Position numbers and translations under genes: made by a program. From NCBI RefSeq assembly GCF_014205845.1, contig NZ_JACHCR010000013.1, forward strand, positions 1 through 64,000: 64,000 nucleotides of DNA, read 5' to 3'. This document shows, in pieces, positions 1,876 through 46,539 of the stretch. Source of the stretch: Mucilaginibacter cryoferens. GTDB lineage: Bacteria > Bacteroidota > Bacteroidia > Sphingobacteriales > Sphingobacteriaceae. The first letter of the stretch is position 1; each line of letters opens with the position of its first letter. Under the pieces are notes generated by a model, which was not told the origin of the DNA, ran no database searches, and was given only the letters and a program-made list of their open reading frames with translations.

Positions 1876-1992
1876 TTTTGATAGATAGGTTATAGTAAGA
1901 TTATACTTTATTAACAACCAGAGCAGATAGCAGGCTCACATGTGTTTTATTTTTAAACGGTTATACTTTACATTATGAATAAAACCGTAATT

Positions 1993-2035
1993 AACCGCCG
2001 GTAACAAAGCAGGGGATATTTTATTACCGGCGGTT
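1993..2035 (-). terminator. Hairpin just after susD (attenuator or partial terminator)
   Basis: Twelve-base arms at 1993-2004 (AACCGCCGGTAA) and 2024-2035 (TTACCGGCGGTT) are perfectly complementary around a 19-base loop. It sits 7 bases past the susD stop. On the minus strand the following bases (TTAATTACGG) are only modestly U-rich, so partial termination or 3'-end protection of susCD mRNA is more likely than a full stop. Confidence 0.55.
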
Positions 2036-2041
2036 TTTATA

Positions 2042-3853
2042 TTACCAACCTGGGTTTTGAACCATGTTATTGTTCTTTAACACCTCATCATTAGGTACCG
2101 GGAACAAATAATCGCGTTCTTTTTTGAATACGCGGGTTTCTAAAAGTGTTTTATTATAAAAACTATTATCGCTTTTGCTCATATCCATACCGAAAAATTG
2201 ACCGGCATCTGTAGTTGCAGCTATTTTCCATCTGCGGGTATCAAAATAACGCACATTTTCAAAAGCCAATTCTACACGACGTTCGTTTTGAATTGCTAAA
2301 CGCATAGCAGCCTGGCCAGCAGGAGCAGGTAATGTTGTGCTACCATACGCCGGAACATCGGCACGTTGACGAATAAGGTTAATGTATTTTAAGATATCTG
2401 CATCGCCAGGGGCCGACTCGTTGAGTGCTTCAGCATAATCCAAATAGATATTAGCGAGCCTTAACATAATTGCACCTCTTGATCCGTCGCTTTGGGTTAC
2501 ATCTTTACGTGGTATGTAACCTGTAGGTGTTACATCTGACGTACTTTGTACACGACCGGAGTTGCCATTGTAAGTAAAATCAGTAATAAGTGTTGAACCC
2601 GTTACCTGGTTTAACCAATAACTTCCATTGTAGGTTACACCCACATAAAAGCGAGGCTCGCGACCTACCCATTGATTATAAGTATTTCTGGCGGCTACGT
2701 CAAAGGGTGCTTTAAAGCTCGAAAAACCACTTGAAACATAACCTGAAGCAGGATCTGTAATAGGCAAACCATTGGCCATAAAATAAGCATCAACCATAGT
2801 TTGTGTTACACCCAATGCCCCTCCACCCTGATTGGCAGAACTTGGAGAAGCCGCTCCAACATGTTTTGGAGTACGGTCATACTGTGTATAACTGCCACTG
2901 TTTGATCTTGCAAAGATCCACTCACTATTCCAGTCTGTAGTTACCACATCGCGGCATGATTTATAGGCAGCAATAAAAGGATCGGGATCTGTTTCCGTAT
3001 AAAGACTATAAGTAGTTGGCACAAATGCATTTATGAACTCCTTGGCAGCAGCAGCAGCGGCAGTCCATTTGGTTACATCAACAGATTGGCTTATTAATGC
3101 TGTACCATCGTGATTTTTTAACGATGCAAAATCAGTATTACCATTATAAAGCGGGCTGGCCTTAAGTAACAAAGCTTCAACCTTATACGCTTTACAAATT
3201 CCGCTTGTGATCCTGCCGTATTGACCTGTTGCCGGAGTTGCTTCTAAATCAGTAGCAGATGCATCAAGTTCAGACACAACATAATCAATCCCTTGGTCAA
3301 AAGGCGTACGGGCCAGTCTTAAATCGACAATAGGCGCATTGATATCCAGCACCTTATCACCCACAATAGGCACCGGACCGTAAGTGCGTAATAGCCAGTA
3401 ATAGTAAAGCGCACGTAAGCCACGTGCTTCAGCTTTATAGGTTTTCTTTAAGTTTACATCTACTTCTACAGGGTTGGCGCTATCAATGTTTTGTATAAAG
3501 TAAGTTGCATTACGGATAGCTATATAATAGTTATTCCAATAAACTGCTACATCACCATCGGTGTTGCTCCAGGTGCTGGCGTTCATGTTATTGCTATAAT
3601 TAAAATCCCAGTTGTATTTAGCTTCGTCAGATGATGCTGTCCACGGTCCAGAATTACTTGTTCCATTGTATCGCTGCGTTAACTCATCGGGTATGGCACT
3701 GTAAATATTAGCTAAAAAATTATCTGTATTGGTTTTAGAAGTAAATATCTTATCTGTTGTGATGATATCATCCGGAACCTGGCTCAGATATTTCTTGCAT
3801 GAACCCAGGCTTAGCGCGAGTACACACAAACTTATATATGTAATTTTTTTCAT
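2042..3853 (-). CDS. SusD/RagB family nutrient-binding outer-membrane lipoprotein
   Basis: This 603-residue protein starts with a lipoprotein signal (Cys19 in LSLGSCKK). It has the SusD layout: an N-terminal helical region with TPR-like packing (KAEARGLRALYYYWLL near 140) and a C-terminal part with NERRVELAFENVRYFDTRRW near 525, both typical of the family. SusD proteins form the surface lid of a SusC transporter and bind the glycan or peptide to be imported. It lies 26 bases downstream of a susC gene. The neighbours (two peptidases and a GH92 mannosidase) suggest a glycoprotein or glycopeptide ligand, an inference from context only. Confidence 0.93.
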   Translation of the reverse strand: MKKITYISLCVLALSLGSCKKYLSQVPDDIITTDKIFTSKTNTDNFLANIYSAIPDELTQRYNGTSNSGPWTASSDEAKYNWDFNYSNNMNASTWSNTDGDVAVYWNNYYIAIRNATYFIQNIDSANPVEVDVNLKKTYKAEARGLRALYYYWLLRTYGPVPIVGDKVLDINAPIVDLRLARTPFDQGIDYVVSELDASATDLEATPATGQYGRITSGICKAYKVEALLLKASPLYNGNTDFASLKNHDGTALISQSVDVTKWTAAAAAAKEFINAFVPTTYSLYTETDPDPFIAAYKSCRDVVTTDWNSEWIFARSNSGSYTQYDRTPKHVGAASPSSANQGGGALGVTQTMVDAYFMANGLPITDPASGYVSSGFSSFKAPFDVAARNTYNQWVGREPRFYVGVTYNGSYWLNQVTGSTLITDFTYNGNSGRVQSTSDVTPTGYIPRKDVTQSDGSRGAIMLRLANIYLDYAEALNESAPGDADILKYINLIRQRADVPAYGSTTLPAPAGQAAMRLAIQNERRVELAFENVRYFDTRRWKIAATTDAGQFFGMDMSKSDNSFYNKTLLETRVFKKERDYLFPVPNDEVLKNNNMVQNPGW

Positions 3854-7633: not shown

Positions 7634-8032
7634 AAGTTGGTGGTTAAGTGTTTAAAAAAATGAATCATATATGTTATTTAGTTAATTGCTGAGATAACAA
7701 AAGGCAAGACCTAAAATTGAGGCAATACTTCACTAACACGATTTAGCAACCGAGCAGTGGCGTATTCACTTACTATTAAGGAATAATTTTATATCAATAA
7801 AAAACAATGGCAAATTGCACGTTACCGCAATCGCGAAAACATCAGAAAAGATCTCGTGAATTGCATCTTAACCCCTCCGGCAAGGCGAAGCATACAAAAC
7901 AAGATTGCAGCCGCTAATTGGCAGCGCCGGATTTAGACATGTAAAATTTAATCATAGGTGGTTTTTATTTAAGTTTTAGAACCATCAATCATCCCTTTGA
8001 AACACAGGAGTAACCGAATTTTATTAAACCAA

Positions 8033-8050
8033 TGATAAAACGTTTTATCA
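8033..8050. promoter_or_regulatory. LacI-family operator O1 (perfect 18-bp palindrome)
   Basis: TGATAAAACGTTTTATCA is a perfect inverted repeat with the central CG typical of LacI-family operators. It lies about 30 bases downstream of the predicted transcription start of the leftward operon and next to lacI. Related sites occur at 8096-8113 (14 of 18 identical) and 9566-9583 (15 of 18 identical). Confidence 0.75.
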
Positions 8051-8083
8051 ACACGCGCACACGTTTTTAACAATAGGATAATT

Positions 8084-8115
8084 CAAATATAATATTAGTA
8101 AAATGTTTTACCAAA
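8084..8115 (-). promoter_or_regulatory. Bacteroidota sigma-A type promoter for the peptidase/susCD operon
   Basis: On the minus strand TTTG (8115-8112), a 20-base spacer and TATATTTG (8091-8084) fit the Bacteroidota -33/-7 consensus TTTG-N19..21-TAnnTTTG. The second LacI-type palindrome lies inside the spacer, so bound repressor would block RNA polymerase directly. Confidence 0.6.
8096..8113. promoter_or_regulatory. LacI-family operator O2 inside the promoter spacer
   Basis: TAGTAAAATGTTTTACCA matches the perfect operator at 8033-8050 at 14 of 18 positions and keeps the AAAA-nG-TTTT core. Its centre is 63 bases from the centre of O1, which is six turns of B-DNA, so both face the same side of the helix. 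Confidence 0.6.
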
Positions 8116-8306
8116 AAAATTCTTCACTTTTTATAATAAACATGAAAAAAATTCGATATCTTCAACAGTAAGTATACAAAATCAAACAAATCAATAACAA
8201 ATGCAGCTATTTTATAAATTATTTTCAACAATAAATTACAAAACTGAAAACTGACAGTTAAAAACCACTAGTCATCACAGAAAATAAACGTATTTGGCGG
8301 AAAGAT

Positions 8307-9332
8307 TTAATTAACTAATGTAGTTGAACCACGCTCAACCAATTGAGCCGGAATCTGAAGTTTAATTTTGGAAATATCGTACTTTTCGTTACTCATTTGG
8401 GATAGTAACACATCAATTGCCGATTTGGCTATTTCATAGGTAGGTTGCCTAACGGTGGTAATACCCGGCGGGTACAAATTAAAAATTTCATTATCATCAA
8501 AACTAATGACGGCCAAATCGGCCGGAATGTTCAGCTTAAGCTCTGTGATACTTTGCAGCCCCATTGTACCCAAATAGTTGGTAGTAAAAAACACCGCGTC
8601 CATTTGCTTTTGCTGTTTCAAAAAAGCTTTTATAGCATCTACCGCTGCTTCCCGCTCCATATCAAAAGGCAATTTAAAGATCATCTTTTTATCATCTTTA
8701 AAACCGGCTGCTTTTAAAGCATCCTTGTACCCCTGCGTTCTATCCTGTAGTTGAATAAGCTCAAGATCGGCCGTAACCAGGCCAATATTTTTGTAGCCCG
8801 AATTTGCCAAAAACTTTACGGCATCATAGGCGCCGTTATAATTATCAACCAGTACATGAGGTATATCCAACCCCGGGAAATAGCCATCTATCAGCACCAC
8901 AGGCTTTTCGTTAGCCACCAGGTTTTGAATTTCTTTCTCCAAACCTTTCATCGGGGTTATAATATAGCCATCAACCAGTTGCTGCGAAAGCATCCGGATA
9001 ACATCTTTCCCTTTTTGAATATTGTTATTGGTACTACAGTAAATAACCCCATAGCCCGCCTTTTCTGCTTCTTCTTCAATTACTTTGGCCATTGCTCCAA
9101 AAAACGGGCCGCCAATTGTTTCAACAATTAGCCCGATAACTTTTGATACTCCTGTGCGTAAACCTACGGCCATACGGTTAGGTTCGTAACCGTTTTGCTG
9201 AGCTACGTCTAATATTTTTTTTGAGATCTCTTTACTTATACGCCCTTTTCCATTTAAAACAAACGATACCGTAGTTATAGAAGTATTGGTAAGTTTTGCA
9301 ATATCTTTTATCGATATTTTTTTGTTCATCAT
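8307..9332 (-). CDS. LacI family transcriptional regulator
   Basis: The 341-residue protein has an N-terminal LacI helix-turn-helix and hinge (ISIKDIAKLTNTSITTVSFVLNGKG, about residues 6-30, then YEPNRMA at about 50-56). A periplasmic-binding-protein-like effector domain follows (VIGLIVETIGGPFFGAMAKVIEE and later LAVISFDDNEIFNLYPPGITTVRQP). It is probably a repressor released by a small sugar or derived metabolite. Palindromes on both sides of the gene, before the leftward susCD operon and before the rightward permease, indicate it controls both arms and perhaps itself. ATG at 9332 or 9329 are both possible starts. The effector is unknown. Confidence 0.92.
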   Translation of the reverse strand: MMNKKISIKDIAKLTNTSITTVSFVLNGKGRISKEISKKILDVAQQNGYEPNRMAVGLRTGVSKVIGLIVETIGGPFFGAMAKVIEEEAEKAGYGVIYCSTNNNIQKGKDVIRMLSQQLVDGYIITPMKGLEKEIQNLVANEKPVVLIDGYFPGLDIPHVLVDNYNGAYDAVKFLANSGYKNIGLVTADLELIQLQDRTQGYKDALKAAGFKDDKKMIFKLPFDMEREAAVDAIKAFLKQQKQMDAVFFTTNYLGTMGLQSITELKLNIPADLAVISFDDNEIFNLYPPGITTVRQPTYEIAKSAIDVLLSQMSNEKYDISKIKLQIPAQLVERGSTTLVN

Positions 9333-39749: not shown

Positions 39750-41114
39750 CTATGGCGATACTGTACCGTTGAGATGACTCCAGATAACATCAAATACATC
39801 TGTAGATGCAATGCTTTCTGAAACTATTTTTTGCCTGGTAACCAAAACCGGAGCATATTTCTTTAGAACTCCAATCCTTCCATGAGACCCTTTTATCAAA
39901 TTTGCATCCAACGGTATCACATCCATAACGTACCTCAAACCAGCTTTTTTACGCAACAACTTATATCCTGCACGTGCTTTTGACGTCATGAACATTTCAA
40001 CAGGATCGTATCCCGGCTTTTTATGAATATCAACCACGCGGGCATAATCTGGCGCTTTATCATCATCCAGCCAAAAATAATAGGTGAACCAGCTATTTTC
40101 CGCGGCAACCAACACCAGGTCGCCAGAGCGCTCATGGTTAATGTGATACTTTGATTGTTCTTGCTTGTTCAGAATAAGTTCAACCCCGGGTTCGTTTTTT
40201 AGTAAACTCACAACTTGCTCTGCAACCGAAGGGTCGTTGATATAAACATGAGCTATTTGATGGTCGGCAACAACAAATGCTTTGGATGCTCCCGGATCGA
40301 GCAGTTCGAGCCCACGCTCTATCCTTACGTTTAACAATCCATGCTGGCGAAACAAGCGGTTTAGGTGTACCGGATTATTTACAGGAGCAATACCATACTC
40401 TGATAGCAAAATAATTTGAGCACCTTTCTTTTCGTAAAATACAACAAGCTCTTCCACCAATTTATCAATCTGCTCAAGATCGGTCGCAATCTTTGATTCA
40501 TCCGGACCAAATTTCTGGAGACAATAATCCAAATGCGGAAGGTAGATTAATGTAAGTGTGGGATCATGAAGATCGTCTGTGAGCATTGACGCATCTGCAA
40601 TCCATTTGCTCGACTTGATATTAGCGCCGGGCCCCCAGAACTGAAAAAGTGGAAACTGCCCTAATTTTTCCTGCAACTGATCACGAAGCTCCGGCGGATT
40701 AGAATAGCAGTCAGGCATCTTTCGGCCATCTGCCAGATAATTAGGTCGTGGTGTTACCGAATAATCGGCTGTCGAATACATATTATACCACCAAAACATC
40801 ATCGACGAGGTAAAAGAAGCATCTTGCGCTTTAGCTTTATCCCATATTTTTTCGCCAATAACCAACTTGTTGGATTGTTTCCAGAATTTTACTTCGCAAT
40901 CAATACGATCATACCAGCCATTGCCCACTATTCCGTGGTCAACCGGGTATTTTCCGGTAAGATAGGTTGATTGTACCGATGTTGTAACCGCAGGCAAAAG
41001 TGGCTCGATGTTGGTTAAATGCCGGCTGGCTATATATTTCTTCAGAAAAGGCGTATGGTTGCCAATTACAGCGGTAGAAAGGCCAACAATATCAATTACA
41101 ACAGTTTTATTCAT
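39750..41114 (-). CDS. eboF: EboF-type alkaline phosphatase superfamily phosphodiesterase
   Basis: The 454-residue cytoplasmic-looking protein starts VIDIVGLSTAVIGNHTPFLKKY and has PLLPAVTTSVQSTYLTGKYPVDHGIVGNGWYDR, matching the nucleotide pyrophosphatase/phosphodiesterase fold with a catalytic Thr and metal-binding Asp/His residues (later LPHLDYCLQKFGPD, LLSEYGIAP, KGSHGRIG). It is the final gene of a complete ebo cluster, so it is EboF by position and family. Ebo proteins are linked to export of the scytonemin precursor in Nostoc, but the role of EboF is unproven. It starts 11 bases after eboE. Confidence 0.88.
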   Translation of the reverse strand: MNKTVVIDIVGLSTAVIGNHTPFLKKYIASRHLTNIEPLLPAVTTSVQSTYLTGKYPVDHGIVGNGWYDRIDCEVKFWKQSNKLVIGEKIWDKAKAQDASFTSSMMFWWYNMYSTADYSVTPRPNYLADGRKMPDCYSNPPELRDQLQEKLGQFPLFQFWGPGANIKSSKWIADASMLTDDLHDPTLTLIYLPHLDYCLQKFGPDESKIATDLEQIDKLVEELVVFYEKKGAQIILLSEYGIAPVNNPVHLNRLFRQHGLLNVRIERGLELLDPGASKAFVVADHQIAHVYINDPSVAEQVVSLLKNEPGVELILNKQEQSKYHINHERSGDLVLVAAENSWFTYYFWLDDDKAPDYARVVDIHKKPGYDPVEMFMTSKARAGYKLLRKKAGLRYVMDVIPLDANLIKGSHGRIGVLKKYAPVLVTRQKIVSESIASTDVFDVIWSHLNGTVSP

Positions 41115-41125
41115 AACAGTAATTT

Positions 41126-42331
41126 TTAATGGCTCAAAATATGTTTAACCCAGTTTAACTCTCTTATGATAGACTGCGTTAGCGGTAGTTTTAATTCGCC
41201 CGGCAAAACGCCCCAGGTATAGGTTTCAACCTCCAGATGCTGTGTAAAGTTTTTTTGTGCCTGTAATTCCAATACTTTAACAATATCGTCCTGCGTGGAT
41301 TGCAGCACTCCGAAGCTTTCTAAAAAAACGGGAACATGAAAGTGCGCCCTCCATTCTTCAGCATAATCCTGCGCAGCCAAAGCAGCGGGCAGATCGGGAT
41401 ATCTAACAAGCGAACCATCGCTATTTCTTGCAACTACCTGGTGCAGGTAGGTGGGCTCATTAAAGTAGCTAAAGGCTGTCAATATATCCTGCTTATTACG
41501 CCCCTCAGCATCAAAACTTCCTTTAAGCGCAGCGCTGAGCTGTATTTTACCAACTTTAATACCTTTTTGAGCCAGTATATTTATTACTTCCTCATGAGAC
41601 TCATAACCGATAGCAAAATGGCATACATCATAACACAATCTTATATGCTCTTTTATAACTTCCTCGGCCTCAGTAGCATTTAATTCAAATTGGTTTTGGA
41701 AATATAATATGCCGGCAGGCAAAAGAACAGTTTCAAACCATGCTATAAATTCACTGCCGGTTTCCAGAATACCATCGGGCTCTGGTTCAATATCCAGATG
41801 CATGGTTACCCCTTTTGTTAATTTCATCAAATAAAGTTCTTCGGCTACCTTCAGTATGTTTTGCGTAGCAACTTTTTTAGCTTCAGATATTTCTTCAGCC
41901 TCATTAAACCAATACCTGTAGCTTAATGGAGAAGTAGAAATACCTCCTTCCATTCCAGGAGGAAGCAACCCGGCAAGAATATTAAAAAGCCTTAAGGTAT
42001 ATGCTAACCGATTTTCGGTGGTCCAATCCGGAGCATGTACCTGGTCTTTTACTATGGTATCATGAAACCCGCCATAAGGAAACCCGTTCATGGTAAATAC
42101 ATACGCATCATTATCATGGAGCCATTGTTTAAATAACTGCAGGTTTTCTGCTTCCAATATAGCTATACTGGCTATATTAGATAACCGCAGCCCAATACCC
42201 ATCGGTGCTTCTGGTGATAAATCATTCTTGATCGTCGGGAAATCACCTTTTAAAGCGCTGAAATGATCGGCCCAGCTTTCCCCGGCGTAAATATTGGTGC
42301 AATAAGTAAAATCCGTTGTATTAATCTTCAT
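41126..42331 (-). CDS. eboE: EboE, xylose-isomerase-like TIM-barrel metabolite traffic protein
   Basis: ATG at 42331 (MKINTTDFTYCTNIYAGESWADH) is preferred to the in-frame GTG two codons earlier. The 401-residue protein has the sugar-isomerase-like TIM-barrel pattern: NGFPYGGFHD, MHLDIEPEPDGILE, IRLCYDVCHFAIGYES and KVGKIQLSAALKG, with His/Asp/Glu residues placed as in metal-dependent isomerases. The opening TYCTNIHxGExW-like motif is typical of EboE. It lies between eboD and eboF with spacings of 21 and 11 bases. Its substrate is unknown. Confidence 0.9.
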   Translation of the reverse strand: MKINTTDFTYCTNIYAGESWADHFSALKGDFPTIKNDLSPEAPMGIGLRLSNIASIAILEAENLQLFKQWLHDNDAYVFTMNGFPYGGFHDTIVKDQVHAPDWTTENRLAYTLRLFNILAGLLPPGMEGGISTSPLSYRYWFNEAEEISEAKKVATQNILKVAEELYLMKLTKGVTMHLDIEPEPDGILETGSEFIAWFETVLLPAGILYFQNQFELNATEAEEVIKEHIRLCYDVCHFAIGYESHEEVINILAQKGIKVGKIQLSAALKGSFDAEGRNKQDILTAFSYFNEPTYLHQVVARNSDGSLVRYPDLPAALAAQDYAEEWRAHFHVPVFLESFGVLQSTQDDIVKVLELQAQKNFTQHLEVETYTWGVLPGELKLPLTQSIIRELNWVKHILSH

Positions 42332-42352
42332 GGCCACTTATAATTATTCTAA

Positions 42353-43507
42353 TCAACGTACCTGTATTTCATTAAGCTTTTCGCCCGCCTGTTTCAGTAG
42401 TTCAATGTCTATTTCATGAACTTCCTCTCCTTCGCCAATGCCTTTTAATAGCATGATGGTTAGCTGCCCGCCCAAGTGTTCCCTAAACTCTCCCAATCCG
42501 CTGACGATCGGGCTTTCTCCTCCATCAACCTGCAATAAGGGATGCGAAATTGCAAAGCCCAAACCTAACAGCGTTTTCACAATAAGTTCGGTATCCTCAT
42601 TTGATAAGCGCCCCGAAAGATTGGAATATACGGTATCCAGCGCAATACCCAGGGCAACGGCTTCCCCATGCCGCACCTCAAAATTAGTAAGGTATTCCAG
42701 TTTGTGCGCGCTCCAGTGCCCAAAATCAAGCGGACGGGATGAACCGCTTTCAAACGGATCATTACCGGCTATGTGCTGCATATGCAATTGCGCGCAACGC
42801 CAGATCAGGTAATTCATCGTAGCCATATCCCTTTCAACAAGAGCAACAACGTTATCGGATATCCAATTAAAAAATGCAGCATCCTTTAATAAACCTACTT
42901 TTACGGCCTCAGAAATCCCGGAACGCCAATCGCGTATACTTAAGGTTTCCAGAAATTTTTCGTCATTAAAAACCGCCACAGGCGGAACAAATGTTCCAAG
43001 GAAGTTTTTTTTGGAAAAGTAATTGATCCCATTTTTTACACCGATGCCAGAATCATTTTGTGATAATACCGTAGTTGGGATACGAATGTGCTTTATGCCA
43101 CGATGGGCTACTGCAGCAGCATAACCAACCATATCAAGTACAGCACCACCGCCAACGGCAGCAATGTAAGAATGACGGTCGATACCATGCTTATTAACAG
43201 CATCAAGCACCTTGTTAAAATACTTTTCGCTGCTTTTTACAACCTCGCCTCCAGTAACAATTATAATATCGGGAATCAGGTTAACAGTATTATGAACAGC
43301 AAAATACGCTTTGATGTCAGCCATTAAATTCGGCGTTGCATTGGCAACACCCTCATCTACCACAAACATGATCTTACGTGTAATACCTGTAGGAGATGCC
43401 TGCTGCAAATAATCGTTTAACAACGTATTTTCTTTTTTAAAAATGGCCGATGTAAAGTATATAGGGTATTCAAATTTTATAGAGAATGATTGAGTTAAAT
43501 GCTTCAT
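42353..43507 (-). CDS. eboD: EboD, 3-dehydroquinate synthase-like sugar phosphate cyclase
   Basis: The 384-residue protein has the dehydroquinate-synthase fold: AAVGGGAVLDMVGYAAAVAHRGI near 115-137 for NAD, RIPTTVLSQNDSGIGVKNGIN, GTFVPPVAVFND, SGISEAVKVGLLKD with metal-binding Glu, and DFGHWSAHKLEYL plus RHGEAVALGIALD with His ligands. EboD proteins form a separate branch of the sugar phosphate cyclases, so it is probably not the shikimate-pathway AroB. It sits between eboC and eboE. Confidence 0.9.
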   Translation of the reverse strand: MKHLTQSFSIKFEYPIYFTSAIFKKENTLLNDYLQQASPTGITRKIMFVVDEGVANATPNLMADIKAYFAVHNTVNLIPDIIIVTGGEVVKSSEKYFNKVLDAVNKHGIDRHSYIAAVGGGAVLDMVGYAAAVAHRGIKHIRIPTTVLSQNDSGIGVKNGINYFSKKNFLGTFVPPVAVFNDEKFLETLSIRDWRSGISEAVKVGLLKDAAFFNWISDNVVALVERDMATMNYLIWRCAQLHMQHIAGNDPFESGSSRPLDFGHWSAHKLEYLTNFEVRHGEAVALGIALDTVYSNLSGRLSNEDTELIVKTLLGLGFAISHPLLQVDGGESPIVSGLGEFREHLGGQLTIMLLKGIGEGEEVHEIDIELLKQAGEKLNEIQVR

Positions 43508-43539
43508 GTTGGAATTAAGAACATAGTAAATTCAATTGT

Positions 43540-44427
43540 TTACGTAACTGCAAAGAATTTTGCAAGCCACAATGATAAAGGCAACAAACAGGCAATGCCT
43601 ATTGCCGCGTAAATATTGCTGAAAGTTATTGCCCATGCCGCATCCATTAAAATAAGAGATATCACCCCTGCTTTAACCGCAGGGCCTATATTTTTACCTA
43701 CCGGATTTTGGATAGCCTTGAACAGCGGCTTATAAATCATCCACAAGAATGGGATTAAAATAATGGCCGACAACAGCAATTTGTTATTGATGTATGAAAA
43801 AGAAAGGATGCTTCCAGTAACAATTGCATATAATACCGCGGCGATCCATAAATTTCTTTTATTCCCTCCGTTTACCTCCCCATGACTAATCATGGTGATG
43901 GAAAAAATATAAACTACAGGCACTACAGCCAGCGCGTACCATGTGCTTAATGATGCGGTTATAATACTAACACCTAAAAGCAGGTTAAGCCCCCTGCAAA
44001 AGCCCATATTCAAAGGGCCGAAAAACGGGTTATGCTTGCTAATCTTATTATACAATAACGCAAAAAAGGCGATTGCCACAGCTAAAATAGCCGAAGACAA
44101 ATTATTAAACCCGGCTAATATAACACCAGCTGCTAACAGTATGCCCCCGAATGTGGCAGCCTGCCCTTTGGTGATTAAACCACTTGGAATAGCCCGTTCG
44201 GGGCGTTCAACCCTATCCAGGTCTGCATCAAAAACATCGTTGAATACAATACCACCGCCATATAAACAGGCCGTTGAAATGCTAAGCAACAATATCCCTG
44301 GCCAGTTATCTTTAAATAGGTTGGGTAAAAAAGCGCCGGATATAGCAGCACCTGCCAAAACATCAGCAATTGAGGTTACAACATTTGCAGGCCGAACCAT
44401 GCGTAAATAAACAAACAGTCGGTTCAA
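43540..44427 (-). CDS. eboC: EboC, UbiA-family prenyltransferase
   Basis: The 295-residue membrane protein has about 8-9 helices and UbiA motifs: NDVFDADLDRVERPERAIPSG (NDxxDxxxD, near 64-84) and a weaker second acidic motif, replaced by SHGEVNGGNKR near 182. The frame opens at TTG 44427 (5 bases after eboB); ATG at 44400 (MVRPANVVTS) is the alternative start and I cannot decide. UbiA enzymes transfer prenyl groups onto aromatic or other acceptors in the membrane. In the ebo cluster the acceptor is unknown. Poor conservation of the second Asp motif is worth noting. Confidence 0.88.
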   Translation of the reverse strand: MNRLFVYLRMVRPANVVTSIADVLAGAAISGAFLPNLFKDNWPGILLLSISTACLYGGGIVFNDVFDADLDRVERPERAIPSGLITKGQAATFGGILLAAGVILAGFNNLSSAILAVAIAFFALLYNKISKHNPFFGPLNMGFCRGLNLLLGVSIITASLSTWYALAVVPVVYIFSITMISHGEVNGGNKRNLWIAAVLYAIVTGSILSFSYINNKLLLSAIILIPFLWMIYKPLFKAIQNPVGKNIGPAVKAGVISLILMDAAWAITFSNIYAAIGIACLLPLSLWLAKFFAVT

Positions 44428-44432
44428 ATCAG

Positions 44433-45416
44433 TTAGCTTATAATGATAGATGATTTGTCAATGCGGGGTTGTTGCCCGCCACGCAAAATACTGTTTCCTT
44501 CAAACCGGCCGCTCTGATCAACCACTGCGTTAAAATCTACCTCATTGATTTGCCCGCTTTGCCCAAAGGCCGATATTGCATTGGTATAAGTCACCAGCTC
44601 AATATCATGGTCGCTGATACCACTCAGTTTCATTAACGCGGCAGTTTTAGGCACAGCCAGCGGATCGCTTATTCCCCAGTCTGCTGCAGAGTTTACCATA
44701 ATACGTTCCGGGCCGTATTGTTTAACAATCTCAACCATCCTTTCGTTTCCCATTTTGGTAAAAGGGTAAATGGTAAATGCAGCCCAAAAACCGCGATCAA
44801 GCACTTCCTTTACAGTTTCCTCGTTGTTGTGATCAACAATTACCATATGCGGATCGAGCCCGTGTTCAATTGCGATATCCATACTTCGCTGTGTACCACG
44901 CTTTTTATCGCGGTGCGGGGTATGTATCTGCACCGGCAAACCAGCTTCCTTCGCAAGATCAAGTTGTAAACGATAGTATTTTTCTTCTGCAGCCGTTTGG
45001 TCATCAAATCCAATTTCACCAATCCCAACTACCCCCTCTTTGTATATAAACAAAGGCAGCATCTCCATAACCTGCTCGGCAAGGGCTTCATTATTGGCCT
45101 CACGGGAGTTTAAACCGATGGTACAATAATGTTTTACGCCGAACTGCGAAGAACGAAAACGTTCCCAACCAATGAGGCTGCTATAATAATCTTTAAAACT
45201 ATCCGACCCTGTACGCGGCTGACCCAGCCAAAAAGAAGGTTCAATAATCGCTACTACGCCCGCATCGGCCATGGCCTCGTAATCATCCGTTGTACGGGAG
45301 GTCATGTGTACATGCGGATCAAAAAACTTCATTCCTTTTATAATGCCAATATCAAATATTCCCGATGCTTTTTCGGCCGGGATAACTCTTTCCTCCTGGT
45401 AATGACTGCAACACAT
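44433..45416 (-). CDS. eboB: EboB, TatD-like metal-dependent hydrolase
   Basis: ATG at 45416 is used; a TTG at 45440 opens the frame 3 bases after eboA, and ATG at 45332 (MKFFDPHVHM) is a shorter choice. The protein has FFDPHVHMTSRTTDDYEAMADAGV (metal-binding HxH), EPSFWLGQP, GIGEIGFDDQT, LPVQIHTPHRD (metal His) and NSAADWGISDPLAVP. These match the TatD/amidohydrolase fold of EboB. It lies between eboA and eboC with tight spacing. Substrate is unknown. Confidence 0.88.
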   Translation of the reverse strand: MCCSHYQEERVIPAEKASGIFDIGIIKGMKFFDPHVHMTSRTTDDYEAMADAGVVAIIEPSFWLGQPRTGSDSFKDYYSSLIGWERFRSSQFGVKHYCTIGLNSREANNEALAEQVMEMLPLFIYKEGVVGIGEIGFDDQTAAEEKYYRLQLDLAKEAGLPVQIHTPHRDKKRGTQRSMDIAIEHGLDPHMVIVDHNNEETVKEVLDRGFWAAFTIYPFTKMGNERMVEIVKQYGPERIMVNSAADWGISDPLAVPKTAALMKLSGISDHDIELVTYTNAISAFGQSGQINEVDFNAVVDQSGRFEGNSILRGGQQPRIDKSSIIIS

Positions 45417-45443
45417 ATCTTTTATATATAAAATCAACAATTA

Positions 45444-46163
45444 TTAAAAAAAACCTCGCTTCATCGCATCCAACACTGGTTCATCTACAAATTTCGCCAC
45501 CAGATACCAAAGCATGGGGTCGACACCACGACCAGCTGCCTGCCGCTCCCTTGCATAATCGGTTAAAATACGGGCAAGTTCCTTATTTGCCCTCTCATCA
45601 AGTCCTTGTATCTGACTGATCTGCTTTTCTGTAAAAAATGCTTTTATCACCATCTGATTCCAGGCCGCCTCGTCCAATTGCTCGGCGGGATAAGGATTCT
45701 GATACATGATCGCTTCAAGCACACTCCCTATATTACTCCTGATCCCCTCAGCGCAGCGTTTGCCCCATAGCTCAGGAAAGGGTAACACAGGTAAGGCAGA
45801 ATAAAGGGCAACCTGTTCATTCATCTCAGCTGCCGAAAACAAATCTTCAATTAATTGATAGTTTTTGTCCTTTTCTTCACTACCTTTTGTAACCAGTAAG
45901 TACACCCTGCATAATCTATCTGTCGTCCATTCATCAATTGTAAAACCTGGCCGTATATGTTTCAACTGTTGCGACTCCGCTTCGCTAAAAACCACCTTAG
46001 CCTTGCCCACTCTTCGCGGCATTTGCACAAATGCACCCTTAACAAAGCTTAGCTGGTCAACTACCTGGTGGCCTTGCAGCCATTGAAAAGCATCTGCTGA
46101 AATATTGCGCTGAATAACAACCGATAACCCTTCCCTTAGGTTATTAACATCATAGTTAAACAT
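45444..46163 (-). CDS. eboA: EboA domain protein
   Basis: The 239-residue, mostly helical, cytoplasmic protein ends with LTDYARERQAAGRGVDPMLWYLVAKFV, matching the conserved C-terminal EboA block (DYA.ERw.A.R.v.p.LW). It has no signal peptide or membrane helix. EboA has no known activity; in Nostoc the ebo genes are needed to move the scytonemin monomer to the periplasm. It is the first canonical ebo gene, 10 bases after the TMEM220-like gene. Confidence 0.87.
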   Translation of the reverse strand: MFNYDVNNLREGLSVVIQRNISADAFQWLQGHQVVDQLSFVKGAFVQMPRRVGKAKVVFSEAESQQLKHIRPGFTIDEWTTDRLCRVYLLVTKGSEEKDKNYQLIEDLFSAAEMNEQVALYSALPVLPFPELWGKRCAEGIRSNIGSVLEAIMYQNPYPAEQLDEAAWNQMVIKAFFTEKQISQIQGLDERANKELARILTDYARERQAAGRGVDPMLWYLVAKFVDEPVLDAMKRGFF

Positions 46164-46173
46164 TTAAGCTTGT

Positions 46174-46539
46174 TTATAAAGTAAAATAATCAATAAGCAA
46201 AGCACCCGCAATAATAAGCAAACCAAAAAATTCCCTTGTTTTTTCTATGTAAGGTTTTGTGGCTTGCATGCTCTCCACCAAGCTAGGCTTGTTATACTTG
46301 GTTATCCAATCCCGTACACCATCTTTTTGAAAAAAAAGCAAGAGTGCATAAAACAGGTAACAGGTAATCAATAAAAGATAAATCGTATAAAAAACATGCC
46401 CAAATGCCGCCAAACCGCAACAAACAGCCGCACTCAAATAAATTGGCACCCATAGGTACCAATCAATATCATTAAAATTCAAATAGGCAAAGGCAAGAAA
46501 TGCGATTAAAAAAAAGAGATTTAATATAACTAGTATCAT
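46174..46539 (-). CDS. TMEM220-like small membrane protein heading the ebo operon
   Basis: The 121-residue protein has four predicted helices (about 1-20, 28-47, 50-70, 102-119), with FNDIDWYLWVPIYLSAAVCC and KTREFFGLLIIAGALLIDYF. NDxDwxlW and a C-terminal REFxGL are the recognisable marks of the TMEM220 family. It starts the leftward operon that continues with eboABCDEF, with only 10 bases to eboA. It may be a membrane partner of the pathway; function is unknown. Confidence 0.75.
   Translation of the reverse strand: MILVILNLFFLIAFLAFAYLNFNDIDWYLWVPIYLSAAVCCGLAAFGHVFYTIYLLLITCYLFYALLLFFQKDGVRDWITKYNKPSLVESMQATKPYIEKTREFFGLLIIAGALLIDYFTL

What the first reader, a model, noticed from the sequence alone, without database searches (positions are those of the whole stretch)
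39750..46539. Complete eboABCDEF cluster led by a TMEM220-like membrane protein
All six ebo families occur in order, tightly spaced, with a small membrane protein as first gene. Ebo clusters serve export or modification of unknown specialised metabolites in cyanobacteria, algae plastids and pseudomonads. No scytonemin genes are near, so this host must use it for something else.
Basis: partly seen in the sequence, partly recalled or inferred. Interest (0 to 1): 0.75.

Follow-up and report, generated by a model that had tools for sequence, protein, structure and literature searches.

The report
Ebo operon with seventh TMEM220 gene
A Mucilaginibacter-like bacterium carries the known but unsolved six-gene "ebo" pathway together with a small membrane protein, TMEM220, and comparisons suggest that the pathway joins a ring-shaped sugar alcohol to an isoprenoid tail and that TMEM220, a family with a human member of unknown biochemistry, is repeatedly drawn into it.

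Summary
On the minus strand, 46539-39750, lie TMEM220 and eboA to eboF, in order, with gaps of 32 bp or less. The ebo operon is known (PMC5133447, PMC6282210); its product is not.

New here: (1) The TMEM220 link recurs. It is the first gene in most Sphingobacteriaceae loci read, divergent in some Chitinophagaceae, last (after eboF) in 16 of 23 Flavobacteriaceae ebo genomes. TMEM220 is in 76 of 87 ebo genomes against 24 of 163 others (order) and 22 of 23 against 10 of 126 (Flavobacteriaceae). Linked proteins fall in at least three TMEM220 clades. (2) In 6 of 6 multi-gene Streptomyces ebo loci read, inositol-3-phosphate synthase is present and eboD is not, which supports cyclitol formation. (3) EboF lost four of seven metal-ligand positions of its phosphodiesterase relatives.

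Best reading: EboD makes a cyclitol, EboE and EboB modify it, EboC prenylates it, TMEM220 acts on the product in the membrane. Product, chemistry and TMEM220's action are inferred. Against: most TMEM220 copies phylum-wide are unlinked.

The parts
46174..46539 (-). TMEM220-family small membrane protein, 121 aa, first gene of the operon; predicted four long helices
   Evidence: PF15071 9.7e-25; AlphaFold2 pLDDT 89.1, helices 2-23, 27-45, 51-70, 97-120; N23 D24 D26 W30 Y34 / E99 R102 E103 G106 each in at least 97% of 88 rows
45444..46163 (-). eboA, 239 aa, all-helical protein without a known relative of known function
   Evidence: NF035938/NF035937; AlphaFold2 pLDDT 94.0, pTM 0.90; no confident fold match
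44433..45440 (-). eboB, TatD-like metal-dependent hydrolase family; possible start ATG at 45416
   Evidence: PF01026 1.7e-17; H43, H45, E142, H173, H204, D254 conserved at 97% or more in 93 rows
43540..44427 (-). eboC, UbiA-superfamily intramembrane prenyltransferase
   Evidence: NF035940 378 bits; first Asp-rich motif N63 D64 D67 D71 conserved, second one absent; best solved match digeranylgeranylglyceryl phosphate synthase, 63.9 bits
42353..43507 (-). eboD, sugar phosphate cyclase, not the genome's AroB
   Evidence: PRK06203 560.3 bits, aroB TIGR01357 219.1 below cut-off 305; separate AroB at G000:C10 with 347.6 bits
41126..42337 (-). eboE, TIM-barrel (xylose-isomerase-like) protein by family name; possible start ATG at 42331
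   Evidence: NF035939 488.5 bits; E184, E186, D237, H240, Q266, H299, E369, E371 conserved at 97% or more in 137 rows
39750..41114 (-). eboF, PF01663-family protein with an altered metal site
   Evidence: PF01663 1.9e-62; V10, Q200, E239, Y240 conserved at 97% or more in 135 rows where phosphonoacetate hydrolase has D, H, D, H

Best explanation
The operon encodes a small biosynthetic pathway at the cytoplasmic membrane that makes an isoprenoid-cyclitol compound. EboD closes a sugar phosphate (probably sedoheptulose 7-phosphate) to a cyclitol; EboE (xylose-isomerase-like) and EboB (TatD-like metal site) reshape it; EboC attaches a prenyl chain to a hydroxyl group inside the membrane; EboF, which no longer has the two-metal site of phosphodiesterases, acts on or holds a phosphorylated intermediate; EboA is a helical scaffold. 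TMEM220 is a seventh, membrane-embedded component in many Bacteroidota that modifies or moves the lipid product. In hosts that also make indole alkaloids this product would be needed to bring a precursor across the membrane; in this host the operon stands alone. SHOWN: gene content, order, conservation, the recurrent TMEM220 link, presence of inositol-3-phosphate synthase and absence of eboD in the Streptomyces loci, the changed EboF ligand positions. INFERRED: substrates, order of steps, the product, EboA's and TMEM220's action.
For: Operon. EboD is a sugar phosphate cyclase distinct from the genome's own AroB, with D261 and S257 (S or A in the family) where dehydroquinate synthases have N and R. 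In 6 of 6 multi-gene Streptomyces loci read, inositol-3-phosphate synthase stands next to UbiA, a xylose-isomerase-like protein, EboA, EboB, EboE and EboF homologues (Pfam check of 4 of the 6), and no EboD was found in the 17-19 kb held of each. Gfo/Idh/MocA oxidoreductases (the family that includes inositol dehydrogenase, recalled) sit in front of the ebo genes in Ketogulonicigenium and in all 10 TMEM220-less ebo genomes of one genus of the order sample. EboC's best solved match is an enzyme that adds a prenyl chain to a polyol phosphate (reaction recalled). TMEM220: order sample 76 of 87 against 24 of 163, Flavobacteriaceae 22 of 23 against 10 of 126; linked in at least three clades.
Against: No metabolite or enzyme assay supports a cyclitol; the one biochemical study of EboC seen (PMC9235831) found farnesylation of quinoline acids, which are aromatic. 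In Nostoc every ebo deletion tested keeps the scytonemin monomer in the cytoplasm (PMC6282210), which reads as transport. Inositol phosphate synthase yields a phosphorylated product whereas sugar phosphate cyclases release phosphate (recalled for the former; PMC5133447 for the latter), so the swap is not strictly one for one. Phylum-wide only 6 of 24 EboE genomes have TMEM220 within 7 kb, 12 have it elsewhere and 6 have none. TMEM220 was found in none of 12 non-Bacteroidota ebo loci, nor in the Aureibacter locus, so it cannot be essential to the core chemistry. The Gfo/Idh plus 3-keto-disaccharide hydrolase pair may instead belong to glycoside breakdown. The TMEM220 model matched no informative fold.
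Confidence: 0.5

Rival explanations
1. The ebo proteins together are a translocation machine for small molecules (the published reading from Nostoc), and TMEM220 is its membrane channel or flippase; no separate product is made.
For: Deletion of any of the five ebo genes tested in Nostoc leaves the scytonemin monomer in the cytoplasm without detectable gene-specific intermediates (PMC6282210, discussion part 1 read). TMEM220 is a predicted four-helix membrane protein tied to the operon.
Against: By family, only EboC and TMEM220 are membrane proteins, and no ATPase or porter family was hit among the seven proteins. EboB and EboE keep sets of metal-ligand-like residues across phyla, as enzymes do. 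Presence of inositol-3-phosphate synthase where EboD is missing is easiest to explain as a metabolic step.
Confidence: 0.2
2. The pathway prenylates an aromatic (quinoline- or indole-type) compound made elsewhere; EboD feeds aromatic precursor supply.
For: EboC homologues from three marine Bacteroidota farnesylate 8-hydroxyquinoline-2-carboxylic acid in vitro (PMC9235831). Some ebo clusters lie beside tryptophan-type genes: PF12902 ferritin-like proteins in Aureibacter, Mycetohabitans and G236, scytonemin genes (PMC6282210), the EDB cluster (PMC9655573, passages).
Against: The window's operon stands alone; no neighbour family beyond the seven genes was shared by more than 8 of the 80 named loci. 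EboD is not AroB, and inositol-3-phosphate synthase would not supply aromatics. The authors saw no change with R145A, probably the same residue as the R145 invariant in all 8 sequences aligned here.
Confidence: 0.15
3. TMEM220 is a hitch-hiking neighbour with no role in the pathway.
For: In the phylum-wide sample 12 of 24 EboE genomes carry TMEM220 farther than 7 kb away or on another contig and 6 carry none; 22 of 80 named loci lack it beside eboA.
Against: Linkage in three positions (5' end, divergent, 3' end) and in at least three TMEM220 clades, with at least 8 changes of the linked/unlinked label forced by starred branches; association p 1.2e-17 in a family sample of one genome per genus.
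Confidence: 0.1
4. EboD is an extra dehydroquinate synthase that boosts the shikimate pathway.
For: Database names say 3-dehydroquinate synthase (annotations).
Against: Scores below the aroB cut-off (219.1 of 305), a separate AroB in the same genome passes it (347.6), and substrate-site positions differ. PMC5133447 places EboD in its own clade.
Confidence: 0.05

Closest known systems
ebo operon of Bacteroidota, Cyanobacteria and eustigmatophyte plastids (Yurchenko 2016, PMC5133447)
   Same: All six genes in ABCDEF order, same families
   Different: TMEM220 leads the operon here; the main text of that paper holds 'TMEM220' and 'inositol' 0 times; its supplements were not seen
ebo cluster of Nostoc punctiforme (Klicki 2018, PMC6282210)
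   Same: Homologous Ebo proteins
   Different: There needed for scytonemin and eboD is not in the cluster proper; here no scytonemin gene lies beside it and eboD is inside the operon
UbiA-297 / EboC of Maribacter, Zobellia and Algoriphagus (PMC9235831)
   Same: Same prenyltransferase family and operon
   Different: Assayed with aromatic acceptors; the acceptor here is unknown
Streptomyces ebo-like loci with a SCO3242-family prenyltransferase
   Same: UbiA, EboA, EboB, EboE, EboF homologues in one run
   Different: Inositol-3-phosphate synthase and an extra xylose-isomerase-like protein, no EboD and no TMEM220 in 6 of 6 loci
Phosphonoacetate hydrolase / nucleotide pyrophosphatase family (PF01663)
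   Same: Fold family, Thr at the nucleophile position, one Asp and probably one His ligand
   Different: Four of seven metal-ligand positions replaced by conserved V, Q, E, Y

Membership tests
ebo operon, ABCDEF type | All six eboA-F families present | tested here: met
   EboA passes NF035938 (171.3 of 50) but not NF035937 (218.6 of 320)
ebo operon, ABCDEF type | Order ABCDEF on one strand, tightly spaced | tested here: met
   gaps 3 to 32 bp
ebo operon, ABCDEF type | Function in metabolite export to the periplasm | not testable with these tools
   Needs mutants and metabolite localisation
TMEM220 (PF15071) | Score above the curated cut-off | tested here: met
   87.6 bits, cut-off 27
3-dehydroquinate synthase (AroB) | TIGR01357 equivalog cut-off | tested here: not met
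   219.1 bits, cut-off 305; it does pass NF004852/PRK06203, which NCBI also names 3-dehydroquinate synthase
3-dehydroquinate synthase (AroB) | Asn and Arg of the substrate site (N268, R264 of A. nidulans, numbering and role recalled) | tested here: not met
   D261 and S257 in EboD; D261 conserved at 97% or more in 137 rows
Type I phosphodiesterase / nucleotide pyrophosphatase | PF01663 cut-off | tested here: met
   212.3 bits, cut-off 23
Type I phosphodiesterase / nucleotide pyrophosphatase | Two-metal ligand set D, T, D, H, D, H, H (assignment in phosphonoacetate hydrolase recalled) | tested here: not met
   V10, T44, D196, Q200, E239, Y240, H411; the match of H411 to the last His is my guess, not covered by the printed alignments
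TatD DNase | TIGR00010 cut-off | tested here: not met
   41.1 bits, cut-off 206
TatD-like metal-dependent hydrolases | HxH, Glu, His, His, Asp metal set (recalled) | tested here: met
   H43, H45, E142, H173, H204, D254, conserved at 97% or more in 93 rows
UbiA superfamily | PF01040 cut-off and first Asp-rich motif | tested here: met
   73.1 bits, cut-off 34.2; N63 D64 D67 D71
UbiA superfamily | Second Asp-rich motif (recalled) | tested here: not met
   T178 and E184 (Q in Mycetohabitans) instead; PMC9235831 reports activity of related EboC all the same
HEAT-like helical repeats (EboA) | Confident structural match | tested here: inconclusive

The most novel reading that the evidence does not exclude
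The ebo operon makes a prenylated cyclitol lipid that serves as a carrier or cofactor for moving hydrophobic metabolites, and TMEM220, with its conserved NDxD / ExxRExxG site, is a new type of membrane enzyme or flippase for cyclitol lipids. The orphan eukaryotic TMEM220 proteins would then be expected to act on inositol-type lipids.
Probability: 0.12. Interest if true: 0.85.

Novelty: new variant of a known kind. Interest (0 to 1): 0.5.

Why it matters
The product of the ebo operon, reported in seven bacterial phyla and in some algal plastids (PMC5133447), has been an open question since 2016. Finding inositol-3-phosphate synthase where EboD is missing turns the cyclitol idea from a guess into a rescue test. 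The recurrent link gives the TMEM220 family, which has a human member studied in disease but, as far as I know, of unknown biochemistry, a first pathway context; no paper joining the two turned up in the searches made. The altered metal site of EboF warns against reading it as a phosphodiesterase.

Tried and rejected
EboA: AlphaFold2 model confident, but no fold match in PDB beats background; HEAT-like resemblance to the PP2A scaffold is not claimed as homology. TMEM220: I expected a small-multidrug-resistance (EmrE-like) fold; none was listed, which does not exclude it. EboE: no solved relative at E up to 1 by profile, one chance-level hit by sequence. Bacteroidota promoter consensus (recalled): three hits in the window, none before TMEM220, 4.99 expected by chance. 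Other conserved neighbours: clustering of flanking ORFs in the 82 loci then held (80 of them the named eboA loci) gave only the seven genes in more than 8 loci. Host indole cluster: two PF12902 ferritin-like genes exist elsewhere in the genome; the ORF lists around them, read by eye from their first 50 residues, show no obvious tryptophan-dimer cluster. Rfam and tRNA scans of the window: none. A small membrane protein in place of TMEM220: in 13 loci without adjacent TMEM220 no recurrent small one was seen by a crude hydropathy count, but two have a larger polytopic protein just upstream of eboA on the same strand (L014, 454 aa; L068, 301 aa).

Caveats: co-occurrence counts are not corrected for relatedness except that the Flavobacteriaceae sample is one genome per genus. 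The three genome samples share genomes (at least G000, G002, G003, G005, G006, G007; G375, G379, G426). Conservation counts contain near-duplicate loci of the same genomes and leave out ORFs below a length limit or with E above 1e-30. The TMEM220 tree rests on 129 columns; 123 rows were thinned to 87, and ORFs under 80 or over 230 aa were dropped; its deep forks are weak, so three gains could in part be losses. 'Unlinked' rows from short loci were judged on about 1.5 kb of flank. Linkage by the EboE-distance rule misses G056, where T-A-B-C-D-F is intact and eboE lies 45 kb away. EboD and TMEM220 absence in plasmid loci covers only the stretches held.
Full report
WHAT IS THERE. The minus strand from 46539 to 39750 carries seven genes: TMEM220, eboA, eboB, eboC, eboD, eboE, eboF. 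Family searches support each (EboA also by PF28008 on its listed homologues). Gaps are 3 to 32 bp. By my reading of the translations (no family search), the flanks are a phosphoenolpyruvate carboxykinase and a fructose-bisphosphatase gene, convergent, on one side and an AraC-type regulator on the other; none looks like a scytonemin gene. Named near homologues of EboA and TMEM220 are mostly from Mucilaginibacter. The window lies in a 6.95 Mb draft genome.

WHAT IS KNOWN. The operon was named in 2016 and predicted to make an isoprenoid-cyclitol compound (PMC5133447; abstract, first parts of sections 3.2 and 3.4, and sections 3.4.3, 3.4.4 and 3.7 read). In Nostoc, deletion of any of five ebo genes keeps the scytonemin monomer in the cytoplasm (PMC6282210; abstract, discussion part 1, one further section and passages). 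EboC homologues farnesylate quinoline acids in vitro (PMC9235831; parts 1 and 2 of 4). Product studies of the Pseudomonas EDB cluster were seen only through a review (PMC9655573; passages); the paper itself was not held. A Rickettsiales endosymbiont also has the operon (PMC6092422; passages). 'TMEM220' occurs 0 times in the main texts of PMC5133447, PMC6282210, PMC9235831 and PMC6092422, and none of the 5 papers found for at least two of five TMEM220 and ebo terms holds 'TMEM220'. Of the 100 papers that hold TMEM220, the 20 listed concern human disease, cell biology or animal genomics by title. 'inositol' occurs 0 times in those four main texts.

TMEM220 LINKAGE. (a) 80 named eboA loci were fetched (555 candidates, best 80 kept). 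TMEM220 lies directly upstream in the same direction in 52, divergent in 5, absent from that place in 22; 1 has no flank. (b) In 250 genomes of the order, EboE is in 87 and TMEM220 in 100; 66 of the 87 have TMEM220 on the same strand 3.8 to 6.8 kb upstream of EboE, 10 have it elsewhere (one of these, G056, is in fact linked to eboA with eboE displaced), 11 have none; 24 of the 163 genomes without EboE have TMEM220 (Fisher p 1.6e-30). (c) In 296 genomes across the phylum, EboE is in 24 and TMEM220 in 40 (one below cut-off), both in 18; 22 of 272 without EboE have TMEM220 (p 3.4e-13). Only 6 of the 24 are within 7 kb: 3 upstream, 3 downstream. (d) In 149 Flavobacteriaceae, one per genus, EboE is in 23 and TMEM220 in 32 (one below cut-off). 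By eye, TMEM220 lies 1.4 to 1.6 kb downstream of eboE on the same strand in 16 of the 23 (eboF seen between them in all 12 of these whose locus was fetched; the other 4 by distance), leads the operon in 3 (read in full), lies 4.6 kb downstream in 1, is unlinked in 2 and absent in 1; 10 of 126 without EboE have it (p 1.2e-17). (e) A tree of 87 TMEM220 rows puts most linked ones in separate supported clades: Sphingobacteriaceae/Chitinophagaceae (36 rows, 34 linked, support 100/100), Flavobacteriaceae 3' type (16 rows, 13 linked, 100/98), Flavobacteriaceae 5' type (7 rows, 3 linked, 100/99), and two Segetibacter second copies converging on eboF (100/97); two linked rows, L236 and L082, lie outside these. 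Starred branches force at least 8 changes between linked and unlinked. Recruitment in different positions and clades is what a working connection predicts and plain neighbourhood inheritance does not.

WHAT STANDS IN ITS PLACE. All 10 ebo genomes of one genus (g2) of the order sample that lack TMEM220 have a Gfo/Idh/MocA oxidoreductase and a 3-keto-disaccharide hydrolase directly before eboA; the eleventh TMEM220-less genome, G236, has a PF12902 ferritin-like gene there, as do the Aureibacter and Mycetohabitans plasmids before their ebo genes. None of 12 non-Bacteroidota plasmid loci (L178-L183, L219-L224), nor Aureibacter L177, holds a recognisable TMEM220 in the stretch held.

EBOD EXCHANGE. 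tblastn of EboE in plasmid records matched 47 records, 28 of them Streptomyces. Of 7 Streptomyces records fetched, 6 have a multi-gene ebo locus, and all 6 have inositol-3-phosphate synthase before the prenyltransferase (annotation; tblastn in two unannotated ones) and no EboD in the stretch held; the seventh, L222, is a lone eboE. Pfam confirms the synthase in the 4 annotated ones. Their prenyltransferase is annotated as SCO3242 family in those 4; the one scanned (L182) scores 346.9 bits there and 101 against EboC, while the window's EboC scores 378 against EboC and 148.2 against SCO3242. The simplest account is that the step in question makes a cyclitol.

ACTIVE SITES. Alignments of 86 to 137 rows per protein, including Deinococcus, Alpha- and Betaproteobacteria and Streptomyces (EboD without Streptomyces), show EboB's full metal set, EboE's conserved E184, E186, D237, H240, Q266, H299, E369 and E371, and EboD's K158, E200, K203, H264 and H280 with D261 and W265 of its own type. 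EboF keeps T44, D196 and H411 but has V10, Q200, E239 and Y240 where phosphonoacetate hydrolase has metal-binding D, H, D and H (ligand identities recalled). It is thus a member of the fold family that should not be called a two-metal phosphodiesterase without test. EboC has the first but not the second Asp-rich motif of UbiA enzymes.

TMEM220 ITSELF. Four long predicted helices with a charged loop between the third and fourth. Nearly invariant N23, D24, D26, W30, Y34, E99, R102, E103, G106 in 88 rows: conserved charged residues in so small a membrane protein suggest a binding or catalytic site. By the positive-inside rule (my reading, no tool) both motifs face the cytoplasm. No fold match helps.

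VERDICT. The finding is real and mostly of a known kind. What is added is TMEM220 as a recurrent seventh partner, a genetic argument for cyclitol chemistry, and the altered EboF site. The proposed product and TMEM220's action remain inference.

Noticed in passing
L222 (Streptomyces sp. NBC_01244 plasmid), 7977-9155: A lone eboE beside genes annotated as type II polyketide synthase parts, with no other ebo gene recognised in the 17 kb held.
   Followed up: partly
L219 (Streptomyces sp. NBC_00663 plasmid), 1939-3138: A gene annotated ScyD/ScyE family lies just upstream of an ebo-like locus in an actinobacterium, recalling the scytonemin cluster.
   Followed up: no
L177 2067-5127 and L181 6048-9066: A large unnamed protein plus a PF12902 ferritin-like protein precede ebo in Aureibacter and Mycetohabitans; the Aureibacter large protein weakly matches VioB (28.9 bits, cut-off 1250). 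This hints at ties of ebo to tryptophan-dimer chemistry.
   Followed up: partly
L247 6588-9260 and L248 7399-9492 (host genome, other contigs): The host carries two PF12902 ferritin-like proteins away from ebo.
   Followed up: partly
L067 14593-14973 and L069 10329-10724: Segetibacter loci have a second TMEM220 copy of another clade converging on eboF.
   Followed up: partly
window 44433-45440: EboB is the most conserved Ebo protein among the relatives read: 78-93% identity in nearly all of the named loci and 53-64% in 6 of 7 loci of other phyla, but 38% in Deinococcus.
   Followed up: no
L229 (G557): A flavobacterial genome with eboE but no other ebo gene recognised in the 11 kb held around it and no TMEM220.
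   Followed up: no
L068 8820-9737 and L014 8408-9787: Two TMEM220-less loci have a larger polytopic protein (8 and 9 hydrophobic stretches by a crude count) just upstream of eboA on the same strand.
   Followed up: no
control: The EboE model rings below its cut-off in Haloferax volcanii.
   Followed up: no
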